From the IMG/VR virus record IMGVR_UViG_3300047171_000041, positions 1 through 22,839 of that record: a stretch of DNA of 22,839 nucleotides; one strand, 5' to 3'. Shown here piece after piece: positions 17-18,920 of the stretch. This DNA comes from a virus. Below the pieces are notes generated by a model. It did not search any database, was not told the origin of the DNA, and was given only the letters and a program-made list of their open reading frames with translations. The stretch's first letter is position 1, and the number at the start of each line of letters is the position of its first letter. The position numbers were made by a program, and so were the translations under genes.

Positions 17-49
17 AAAACCCCCATCGGTTCGTCCGGTGGGGGTTTT
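17..49. terminator. Strong, probably bidirectional rho-independent terminator
   Basis: Bases 17-30 and 36-49 form a 14-bp stem (one T/G wobble) around the five-base loop TTCGT. Both ends of the stem are A/T runs: T-rich sequence follows at 46-55 on the plus strand, and TTTTATTATT follows on the minus strand. It can therefore end the minus-strand late transcript that has passed gpM and the repeat array, and also any plus-strand transcript from the left of the window. In one plus frame the first bases read GAA TAA TAA, which could be the tail of a plus-strand gene, but six codons are too few to call it. Confidence 0.85.
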
Positions 50-101
50 CTTTTGGAAAATCGGTGATATGGTCTGATCAGTCAAAGGGCGTGATCGTTC
101 T

Positions 102-980
102 TATCCTGAAAACGAGCCATAGTCGCCGACAGAATCATAATGGCAGAGCAAGCCATATACTGAGAAAGCATCATAACCTTAGTGCGAGCCAGCGACAGTG
201 AAAGCTTCATAGCCTGGGTGCGAGCCAGTCAACATGAGAGAATTAAGAAAGCGAAGCGAGCCAAAAAGCTACATAGAATCATTTCAAAAGAGCGAGCCGC
301 AGGCTAAGAAAGCGCCATAGAAATAGAGCTAGTCAAAGGATTTGATAGATCATAGCGTCTGAACGAATCAGGCGCGCGGATAGCATCAAAGAACATGAAT
401 GAGCCATTGACTCTGAAAGTATCATAGTGAGAGGGCGAGCCATAAACGATGAAAGCACCAAAGTTGCGGATCGAGCCATCAAAGAGGACAGATTAAATCA
501 ACTGAGCGAGTCATTGAAATAGATTGAACCATGTTGAACAAATGAATCGGATGAACTGAAAGCATCAGGCTTAAGGAATGAGCCTTACGATGGGAGAGAA
601 TCAAAGGTTAGAAGCGAGCTATTGTGAATGAAAGATCAAGTCAGGAAAGCGAGTCACACGGTTGGATTGAATCATAGAACGAGAACGAATCAAGTAGATG
701 AAAAGCACCCAACATCGAGAATGAGCCAGGATGTCCGAAAGAACTATTCCGCCTGAGCGAGCCATCCCCATCGACAGAATCAGATCAGCGAAGCGAGCCA
801 GAACGTTTGAAAGAACCAATCCATCGGAGCGGGTCACATCGCCAGATTGAACCATACACAGAGAACGAATCAAGCGGAGAGACAGCATCACGCTCAAGGA
901 ATGAGCCATTGGGTTGGAAATAACCATTACATCTGAGCGAGCCAGGACGTTCGAAAGAATCACGAAGTCTGAGCGCTCAA
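102..980. repeat. 49-unit, 18-bp periodic degenerate word array with higher-order blocks
   Basis: This stretch has no convincing gene. On the plus strand each unit is 8 unconserved bases plus a 10-base word such as GAGCGAGCCA, GAAAGAATCA, GAACGAATCA, GAATGAGCCA, GATTGAACCA or GAAAGCATCA (minus-strand consensus TGRYTCNYTC). The word ends fall at 119, 137, 155, 173 and onward to 980. All steps are 18 except three 17-bp units (336-352, 479-495, 622-638). Units ending at 119-335 alternate GAG-type and GAA/GCA-type words. From 336 the array repeats an ordered set of variants in blocks 336-513 (10 units), 514-656 (8), 657-836 (10) and 837-980 (8). The last unit is degenerate and overlaps the stop codon of the gpM-like gene. 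Hand-counted lines are 43-53% G+C. Function unknown. One minus frame (619-990) is open and reads as hexapeptides, but the phase jumps break it. Confidence 0.9.
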
Positions 981-1324
981 TTCTGATCAAACCTCTCTTG
1001 CAGCAAGACTTGAAGCTCGAACCAGGAACTTTGCTGGTTCGGCTTCCAGCTTAATGCCTCCCATTTGCGAGCCGTGGTTTCGCTCGGAAGCGTGTAATAG
1101 AAAAACAATCCAATATGCGCCCGCAAGAATGTCAAAATCGTATTGTAATCGGTGGCTGATAGCTGATTCCATGCCAGCGTCGCATTCAGCGGTGAATTAT
1201 TCACCCCATCAACAGCCGCCACAACATATCCATCGCCGAGCTGCGAGCGCAGCATCCGTGGCTGCTCATCCAAATTGAGTGGCGCGAACGGTGGAACCGG
1301 CGGCGAAAAAGTGTCCAATGCCAT
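977..1324 (-). CDS. gpM-like minor tail protein
   Basis: A 115-residue protein resembling the phage minor tail protein family of lambda gpM. In that family the protein acts at the tail tip after the tape measure is in place. Visible family features are the early GDGY motif followed by a Dx-N segment, a central run ending in FLRAHIGLFFY, an aromatic/proline stretch, and a C-terminal segment ending in ERF that resembles the FEQ end of gpM. It starts two bases after the stop of the tape measure gene, the position expected of gpM after gpH in lambda. AGGCGG upstream of the ATG can serve as ribosome binding site. It is the last recognisable gene of the operon here; no gpL, gpK, gpI or gpJ homologue follows. 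Its stop codon is inside the last unit of the 18-bp array. Confidence 0.75.
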   Translation of the reverse strand: MALDTFSPPVPPFAPLNLDEQPRMLRSQLGDGYVVAAVDGVNNSPLNATLAWNQLSATDYNTILTFLRAHIGLFFYYTLPSETTARKWEALSWKPNQQSSWFELQVLLQERFDQN

Positions 1325-17432: not shown

Positions 17433-18920
17433 TCAGATCGGCGAAAGATTGGTGATGACGCCGAGCGACGGCGTAAAGTAATGCTGCAACACCTGGTCCG
17501 AATAGACACCATAGAATTGCGAGCGACTCACTTTTGGCCATGTCGTTTGATAATAATCTCGCCGACACTTAATACGCATCGTTTGGCTGATGCCGTTCGA
17601 TGGATACGGAAGCGTATCGGTTGAGAAAAGCACAGTCCCCGGCACCATGTTTGGATGCAGGACGATCGGGATTTCGGTCGGACCACCGGACATCGCAAAC
17701 GGGTTGAGATATCCTTTGGGCATACCGCCGCCGACAATCTGGCCTTGCTGCACGTTGAAAACAAACCGTGCGGCGGAAGCCGAGGTCTGACCTGCAAGGA
17801 TTTTCTTGCGAATCCAAACCATTTCCTGCGAAGAGACGTGCATTTCGCTGGGCGAAAGGCGCAACTGATCCCAGAAATATTGCAAGGCGGTATCAAACTC
17901 GACCACACCACCATCGCCGTCAGCGGTGAGGCCCTGACCCGGTGTTGCGCCGAAGTAATAGGCGTTGTTGGCGGGATTGCCGGCAAAACCAAGAAGGCCA
18001 TCATGCACCAGAAGATTCTGGCTGTAGTTGGCCCCACCCGCAATCGATGCCGCGGTCTGCAAACCGATATTGGTGGCGGGCAGAGCCGTCAGATTGATCG
18101 CGGAAACACGAGTGACGCCAGCGAAGACTTCCGCACCGACCGCACCCGCAAACCAAGCATAGCCATACGCGCCCTGCATCGGATTGATCGAGGCATAGAC
18201 CGAGTTGGTCGTGCCGGCCGAGACGGTCACGGTCGCATTGGCGGATTTGGGCGCACAGCCACCGTTGAAGGTGGTGGTGGTGCCGTCCGCGTTCGCGCGC
18301 GTGCCCTGGGTGACAATCCCGGTGGAGCTGGAATTACCCAGGCCGTCATAGGTCAGCGCCACGCAGATCACGGACACAACGGCGCTGGCACCGATGGTGC
18401 CGCCGGTCGCTGATGCCGCCAAAGTCGGCGTGGTGGTGGTGGGCAGAGCGTAGCTCGCGTTCGAGCCAAGGATGATTTGCTCTTCCGAGATCATCGTAGC
18501 CTGCAGCAGAGTTTTGGTCGCACGCGCCATCACGTCATCATAGCCGGCGCCAGCCAGAACCGCTTCATCGGTGATCGAATCTTCGAGGCCGATGGTGCGA
18601 TACGAGGCATAGAAATCCTCGGTCTGGACAGCGATCACGCCACCACGCACACCCTCTTGAACGCCGGGGTTTACGTTGGTCTGGTTGATGGCCCGAACAC
18701 CCCTCCAGTTAGCTTGCGTGCCGGTACCACCCGTGACGCGCGGGATCTTGTTGCGCAGCGGGGTGAGCACCGGATAGAGGTCTTTGGCCACCGGTTCGAG
18801 GTCGTAGTTGGTAAGGCCCGAGGTCGGCGAAGTGGCTTGCTGGAACGTCGCTTTCGCGAGCGCATTTGAGTCGGATTTGGCGAGTGCTGCTTGCAGCATC
18901 GCATAAACGTCATCAGGCAT
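17433..18920 (-). CDS. Major capsid protein with Ig/Fn3-like insertion
   Basis: 495 residues. The N-terminal arm carries ATFQQATSPTSGLTNYDLEP and DLYPVLTPLRNKIPRVTGG at about 24-66, followed by NWRGVRAINQTN and a GLEDSITDEAVLAGAGYDDVMAR segment. This is the order seen in HK97-fold capsids annotated in many environmental siphophages. Residues about 158-295 form a Thr/Ser/Val-rich insertion (ALTYDGLGNSS, then ATVTVSAGT, then YGYAWFAG) that looks Fn3/Ig-like and would project from the capsomer. The C-terminal half (HVSSQEMVWIRKKIL, then FVFNVQQGQIVGGG) is typical P/A-domain sequence. It is separated from the scaffold-like gene by a terminator and from the next gene by a hairpin. AAGGTG precedes the ATG. 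A stretch resembling residues 24-50 recurs at 20622-20702. Confidence 0.9.
   Translation of the reverse strand: MPDDVYAMLQAALAKSDSNALAKATFQQATSPTSGLTNYDLEPVAKDLYPVLTPLRNKIPRVTGGTGTQANWRGVRAINQTNVNPGVQEGVRGGVIAVQTEDFYASYRTIGLEDSITDEAVLAGAGYDDVMARATKTLLQATMISEEQIILGSNASYALPTTTTPTLAASATGGTIGASAVVSVICVALTYDGLGNSSSTGIVTQGTRANADGTTTTFNGGCAPKSANATVTVSAGTTNSVYASINPMQGAYGYAWFAGAVGAEVFAGVTRVSAINLTALPATNIGLQTAASIAGGANYSQNLLVHDGLLGFAGNPANNAYYFGATPGQGLTADGDGGVVEFDTALQYFWDQLRLSPSEMHVSSQEMVWIRKKILAGQTSASAARFVFNVQQGQIVGGGMPKGYLNPFAMSGGPTEIPIVLHPNMVPGTVLFSTDTLPYPSNGISQTMRIKCRRDYYQTTWPKVSRSQFYGVYSDQVLQHYFTPSLGVITNLSPI

What the first reader, a model, noticed from the sequence alone, without database searches (positions are those of the whole stretch)
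102..980. A 49-unit array of 10-bp degenerate words at exact 18-bp spacing, unlike any standard repeat class
Word ends fall every 18 bases from 119 to 980 with only three 17-bp exceptions. Within a unit, six word positions are nearly fixed (minus strand TG..TC..TC) and four vary in a limited way (RY and NY pairs), while the other eight bases look random. A CRISPR array has longer repeats and spacers; iterons and minisatellites conserve the whole unit. Strong conservation of a short word with free spacers over about 880 bp implies selection on the word and its spacing: perhaps a DNA-bound polymer, a partition or packaging site, or an RNA that binds a multimeric protein (the minus-strand RNA would show UC-rich words at fixed spacing, loosely like Rho or TRAP sites). 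All functions are speculative.
Basis: seen in the sequence. Interest (0 to 1): 0.92.

Follow-up and report, generated by a model that had tools for sequence, protein, structure and literature searches.

The report
A phage TIGR guide-RNA array
The odd 18-base rhythm is a TIGR array, a recently described CRISPR-like store of short paired guide sequences carried by phages; this one holds 24 guides and lies at the edge of a phage contig, without the protein that would use it.

Summary
The array is real (36-bp autocorrelation 15 sd above shuffles) and non-coding. It is not a new repeat class: it is a dual-repeat TIGR array (Tandem Interspaced Guide RNA; Faure et al. 2025, PMC12045711). Sense is the + strand. 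Ten-base edge (GAGCGAGCCA) and loop (GAAAGAATCA) repeats alternate, separated by 8-base spacers A and B: 24 units of 36 bp. The three 17-bp steps are 9-base loop repeats. The published Salicola phage CGphi29 array has the same GCGAGCCA edge and 8-base spacers. Strongest internal test: each edge pairs with the NEXT edge (position 8 with 3 in 23 of 24, p=0.0005), as expected if RNA is cut in mid-edge into 36-nt guides. Some 90 further arrays of this type were found, mostly phage; 71 of 90 lie by a same-strand gene whose profile and model match solved TasR/TasH structures. The window holds no tas gene, but its contig ends 109 bp upstream; its closest phage relative carries tas with a TIGR array. 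Across phages, spacers A and B travel together as 36-bp cassettes joined at edges (A-B kept 91%, edge neighbours 39%), a lead on how arrays grow.

The parts
110..975 (+). TIGR dual-repeat array: 25 edge and 24 loop repeats, 24 tigRNA units of 36 bp (35 bp in three)
110..119 (+). first edge repeat, 5' truncated (AAACGAGCCA)
   Evidence: [quoted passage not shown]
120..127 (+). spacer A of unit 1 (TAGTCGCC); spacer B is 138-145 (TAATGGCA)
   Evidence: all 24 pairs listed
128..137 (+). first loop repeat GACAGAATCA; loops follow every 36 bp
326..406 (+). example of staggered pairing: edges GAGCTAGTCA, GAACGAATCA, GAATGAGCCA; the 3' half of each matches the 5' half of the next
344..352 (+). 9-base loop repeat GATAGATCA, cause of the first 17-bp step
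487..495 (+). 9-base loop repeat GACAGATTA, cause of the second 17-bp step
630..638 (+). 9-base loop repeat GAAAGATCA, cause of the third 17-bp step
971..975 (+). last edge repeat, 3' truncated (GAGCG)
17..50 (.). strong hairpin with A and T flanks, terminator-like on either strand, just 5' of the array
   Evidence: z -4.7 on +, -3.3 on -
977..1324 (-). minor tail protein gene, convergent with the array; its operon would be transcribed through the array in antisense
   Evidence: phrog_14, 1e-9

Best explanation
It is a TIGR array. The + strand would be transcribed into a precursor RNA; a Tas protein dimer binds the box C/D-like ends of the edge and loop repeats, and the precursor is cut in the middle of each edge repeat into 36-nt tigRNAs. 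In each tigRNA the 3' half of one edge pairs with the 5' half of the next, and spacers A and B (8 bases each) pair with opposite strands of one DNA target (top strand = A, then reverse complement of B). Related arrays sit beside a Tas protein made of the Nop domain only (TasA, no nuclease), so the likely action is RNA-guided DNA binding, bending or blocking rather than cutting. Shown here: array anatomy, staggered pairing, tas linkage and Tas homology in related arrays, and a tas gene plus TIGR array in the closest phage relative. Inferred: transcription, processing, target binding, and the presence of a tas gene in this phage beyond the contig edge.
For: 36-bp period with two alternating 10-base repeats and 8-base spacers, truncated edges at both ends. 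Edge i position 8 pairs with edge i+1 position 3 in 23/24 (permutation mean 12.5, p=0.0005); over the non-redundant arrays 1016/1106 against 858 +/- 9, and position 7 with 4 996/1106 against 843 +/- 8; these two are the top pairs of the 100 position pairs scanned. Same edge GCGAGCCA, 8-base spacers and 36-bp lag in the published SpTIGR locus of Salicola phage CGphi29 (PMC12045711). 71 of 90 arrays have a tas gene within 2 kb, always on the GARNGARYCA strand, most often about 11 bp from the array. Tas profile hits TasR 9mty (8e-23), TasH (1e-14) and IS621 (4e-4); AlphaFold model pLDDT 90, Foldseek top 11 all TasR/TasH structures. Closest phage relative (495-aa window protein 17433-18920, 71% identical) has a tas homologue (2e-12) beside an AGCGAGCCA/AGAAACCCA array of 36-bp period.
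Against: No tas gene in the 22.8 kb held. The loop repeats of this array lack the position 3-8 pair that most other arrays keep (0.21 against mostly 0.8-1.0). No 3' terminator on the + strand and no sigma-70 promoter-like site found. No natural target found. No RNA data.
Confidence: 0.97

Rival explanations
1. An array of DNA sites for a protein polymer (partition, packaging or nucleoid site).
For: Fixed spacing and a short conserved word.
Against: The edge pairing is staggered: 3' half of one edge with 5' half of the next, not within a repeat (in variable arrays such as L059, L007 and L058, 100% across against 20-34% within). DNA sites give no reason for that; RNA cut in mid-edge does. Tas homology of the neighbour gene.
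Confidence: 0.02
2. A decayed coding repeat (hexapeptide repeat protein, 18 bp = 6 codons).
For: One 123-aa open frame on the minus strand overlaps the array; some frames give repetitive peptides.
Against: 8-22 stops in every frame of the array; the large related arrays are likewise closed in nearly all frames; the pairing rules follow edges, not codons.
Confidence: 0.005
3. A TIGR array that is an orphan: this phage has no tas gene, and the array works with a Tas protein supplied by another element, or is inert.
For: No tas in the window; a terminator-like hairpin rather than a tas gene lies just 5' of the array; loops have lost one pair.
Against: The contig ends 109 bp upstream of the array; related arrays lie on either side of tas and at distances up to hundreds of bp; the edge pairs are kept in 23/24, so the array has been under selection; the closest relative carries tas.
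Confidence: 0.12
4. A CRISPR array or an IS110 bridge RNA.
For: Repeats with variable spacers; Tas shares the IS110 domain.
Against: 10-base repeats and 8-base spacers; no Rfam match; bridge RNAs are single two-loop RNAs, not long arrays (PMC12045711).
Confidence: 0.005

Closest known systems
SpTIGR, Salicola phage CGphi29 TIGR-TasH locus (NC_020844)
   Same: Edge repeats AAGCGAGCCA and AAGCGAGTCA (both also occur in the window), 8-base spacers, 36-bp unit, locus among structural genes.
   Different: About 10 units against 24; loop AAGACAACCA against GAAAGAATCA; ends in a terminator; its Tas carries an HNH nuclease (PMC12045711), whereas the neighbours of window-type arrays are Nop-only.
TIGR-TasA dual-repeat systems (Faure et al. 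2025, PMC12045711)
   Same: Nop-only Tas of about 265 aa, dual-repeat array directly beside it, mostly in phages.
   Different: Arrays here are longer (up to about 43 units in one array) than the usual 5-15 reported; the window shows no tas gene before its contig edge.
IS110/IS1111 transposases with bridge RNA (IS621)
   Same: Homologous RNA-binding domain (Pfam Transposase_20; IS621 4e-4).
   Different: Only the Transposase_20 part is matched, no transposon ends known, and the guide is an array of 36-nt units.
Box C/D snoRNP (Nop5)
   Same: By the published structure, the same Nop fold and box C/D logic (PMC12045711).
   Different: Guides RNA methylation with K-turn structures; not compared here by structure.

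Membership tests
TIGR-Tas, dual-repeat | Two distinct alternating 8-12 nt repeats separated by spacers of about 8-9 nt, 36-nt unit | tested here: met
   Edge and loop repeats of 10 nt, spacers of 8 nt, lag 36 strongest
TIGR-Tas, dual-repeat | Box C (CCA-like) at the end of both repeats and a shared box D at their start | tested here: met
   Both repeats end RYCA and start GA; box D is GA rather than the UG of TasR arrays, which the paper allows if edge and loop agree
TIGR-Tas, dual-repeat | Edge pairs between successive edges, kept by covariation | tested here: met
   Window 23/24, p=0.0005; all arrays 1016/1106 against 858 expected
TIGR-Tas, dual-repeat | 5' truncated edge at the start and 3' truncated edge at the end | tested here: met
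   AAACGAGCCA at 110, GAGCG at 971
TIGR-Tas, dual-repeat | Rho-independent terminator after the last edge (typical, not obligatory, in the paper) | tested here: not met
   None found on the + strand after 975
TIGR-Tas, dual-repeat | Adjacent tas gene | tested here: inconclusive
   None in the window, whose contig ends 109 bp upstream; present beside 71 of 90 related arrays and in the closest phage relative
TIGR-Tas, dual-repeat | Tas protein has a Nop domain related to TasR/TasH | tested here: met
   Tested for the related arrays only: 9mty 8e-23, TasH 1e-14, Foldseek top 11
TIGR-Tas, dual-repeat | Processed to 36-nt tigRNA that guides DNA binding by both spacers | not testable with these tools
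   Needs small-RNA sequencing and binding assays
CRISPR | Repeats of about 25-36 nt with spacers of similar size | tested here: not met
   10-nt repeats, 8-nt spacers; no Rfam hit
IS110 bridge RNA | Single structured RNA with two guide loops next to a full-length DEDD transposase | tested here: not met
   49-word array; related Tas proteins of about 265 aa match only the Transposase_20 part

The most novel reading that the evidence does not exclude
The 36-bp tigRNA (spacer A + loop + spacer B, bounded by half edges) is the unit of inheritance of TIGR arrays: units are gained, lost, duplicated and passed between phage arrays as whole cassettes joined at edge repeats, at internal positions and without the one-ended growth of CRISPR arrays. 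Selection keeps A and B together because only the pair names a target.
Probability: 0.6. Interest if true: 0.55.

Novelty: new member of a known kind. Interest (0 to 1): 0.42.

Why it matters
It settles a striking but unannotated repeat as a member of a new class of RNA-guided system and brings some 90 further arrays of the same repeat type, mostly in phages, whose neighbour gene public libraries call a transposase. That set bears on two questions the discoverers left open: how TIGR arrays grow, and what nuclease-free TasA systems do. The staggered edge pairing is natural-sequence evidence that each 36-nt guide is cut in mid-edge and that the units are under selection one by one.

Tried and rejected
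Coding repeat (stops in every frame). Direct similarity to known phages (blastn, no match). Rfam (no match). Hits of the word pattern in bacterial genomes were mostly single matches, several of them with an open frame through the words. Search for natural targets (A followed by reverse complement of B, gap 0-2, exact A and at most 1 mismatch in B) in 0.9 Mb of held sequence: 38 matches against 33-47 for four control arrangements, so no signal; the sequence searched is too small. A tas gene inside the window: none. The nearest relatives by capsid-region protein (L131, L132) and by tail protein (L002-L004) lack arrays of the window's repeat type.

Full report
WHAT WAS CHECKED. The window is a 22.8-kb virus record whose structural genes lie on the minus strand (tail, head-tail and neck families). 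Between a terminator-like hairpin (17-50) and the end of a minor tail gene (977-1324, minus) lies the reported array. A chain search recovers 49 words with first bases from 110 to 971, step 18 with three steps of 17. Autocorrelation at lag 36 is 0.504 against 0.273 +/- 0.015 in dinucleotide shuffles. Word columns are strongly conserved, spacer columns nearly uniform.

RELATED ARRAYS. Four consecutive words as a pattern hit 89 stretches of viral contigs. Chained, these and the other loci held gave 103 arrays of at least 8 words; 91 strong ones, 69 of them non-redundant by spacer content, with up to 87 words. The large ones are closed in nearly all reading frames. In bacterial genomes the same pattern gave 23 stretches, 21 of them with a single match, several with an open frame through the words.

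THE PARTNER GENE. In the orientation GARNGARYCA the arrays follow, most often by about 11 bp, the stop codon of a gene of about 265 codons on the same strand. With a profile, 71 of 90 arrays have such a gene within 2 kb, all 71 on that strand; most of the rest sit at the edge of the DNA held. Pfam calls it Transposase_20 and PHROGs a transposase (phrog_4285). The alignment of 28 such proteins finds, among solved structures, TIGR TasR (9mty, 8e-23), TasH (1e-14) and the IS621 recombinase (4e-4). The AlphaFold model (pLDDT 90) has TasR and TasH structures as its eleven best Foldseek matches. With about 265 residues they have room for the Nop domain only, that is, they are TasA-like.

IDENTITY. 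Faure et al. (2025, PMC12045711) describe TIGR arrays: two alternating repeats of 8-12 nt (edge and loop) separated by spacers A and B, cut in mid-edge into 36-nt tigRNAs, bound by a dimer of a Nop-domain Tas protein; A and B pair with opposite strands of the target. Repeats end in a box C (CCA) and start with a box D that agrees between edge and loop. In their SpTIGR locus (Salicola phage CGphi29) the two spacers total 16 nt; read here, its edges include AAGCGAGCCA and AAGCGAGTCA, which also occur in the window, and its lag-36 autocorrelation is 0.486. The window's array reads on the + strand as edge GAGCGAGCCA, 8 nt, loop GAAAGAATCA, 8 nt. It starts with a 5' truncated edge and ends with a 3' truncated edge, as published arrays do. 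The three 17-bp steps all fall in loop repeats, each with one base fewer.

THE STAGGERED PAIRING. If RNA is cut in mid-edge, each guide carries the 3' half of one edge and the 5' half of the next. Position 8 of edge i pairs with position 3 of edge i+1 in 23 of 24 cases in the window, with repeated switches between C-G and T-A, against 12.5 in permuted orders (p=0.0005). Over all non-redundant arrays the figures are 1016 of 1106 against 858 +/- 9, and for position 7 with 4, 996 against 843 +/- 8; these are the two top pairs of the 100 position pairs scanned. Within one edge the same two positions match far less in variable arrays (window 0.60, L059 0.20). In other arrays the loops pair positions 3 and 8 within themselves; the window's loops mostly do not (0.21). 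The source paper reports such edge pairs for TasR arrays from the structure and from comparison between loci; here they are seen unit by unit inside arrays next to TasA-like genes.

THE MISSING TAS GENE. No tas gene lies in the window, but the contig ends 109 bp before the array. The closest phage relative found (71% identity over the 495-aa protein at 17433-18920, by position the likely major capsid protein) carries a tas homologue (2e-12) directly beside a regular array of AGCGAGCCA and AGAAACCCA repeats with 36-bp period. So the lineage does carry TIGR-Tas, though with another loop repeat and at another place relative to the structural genes.

HOW ARRAYS CHANGE. Related arrays share whole units at internal positions amid gains and losses. 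Where two different arrays share an identical spacer A, the spacer B across the loop is shared in 335 of 367 cases, but the spacer B across the preceding edge in only 129 of 334. Per distinct spacer A, 84% have a single partner B but only 27% a single edge neighbour. Unshared units are spread along the arrays, somewhat more at both ends, not at one end only. So the cassette that is inherited appears to be the tigRNA, bounded by half edges. Pairs of arrays are not independent, but both figures come from the same sample, so the contrast stands. Faure et al. name array growth an open question.

MECHANISM AND LIMITS. Shown: anatomy, selection on edges, tas linkage and Tas homology in relatives. 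Inferred: transcription from the + strand, processing, and DNA binding by a nuclease-free Tas. The minus-strand tail operon would, if it reads on to the hairpin at 17-50, transcribe the array in antisense; whether this silences it late in infection is untested. No target was found.

VERDICT. A genuine TIGR array whose edges look selected: a new member of a known kind, and an entry to a large set of phage TIGR arrays of the same repeat type.

Noticed in passing
window 17-1324: The tail operon (minus strand) is convergent with the array and would run through it in antisense up to the terminator-like hairpin; in related phages the array is co-directional with tas.
   Followed up: no
L063, L040, L051, L055, L058 and other related arrays: Spacers A and B are inherited together as 36-bp cassettes; break points fall mostly in edge repeats; single units are duplicated at non-adjacent places (15 identical pairs, 1 adjacent).
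   Followed up: partly
L129:8610-12522: A tas gene flanked by long arrays on both sides (105 and 60 words by a loose chain search), far above the 5-15 units reported as usual.
   Followed up: no
L117:1072-2115, L126:5897-7015, L127:553-1671: Longer Tas proteins in which the Tas profile matches in two stretches, suggesting an inserted domain.
   Followed up: no
L062 and L115 (Acidobacteriaceae bacterium KBS 96, KB906767.1): The same TIGR array type, sharing units with a viral contig, occurs in a named bacterial strain genome, a possible host for experiments.
   Followed up: no
H1, PP438412.1 Microcystis phage Mvi-JY20, 21466-21996: A named phage record encodes a distant Tas relative (29% identity) annotated as hypothetical; its surroundings were not read.
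   Followed up: no
L102 and L097: 18-bp word arrays in Pseudoalteromonas and Mammaliicoccus genomes that pass the pattern but have open frames and no tas gene; likely coding repeats, not TIGR.
   Followed up: partly
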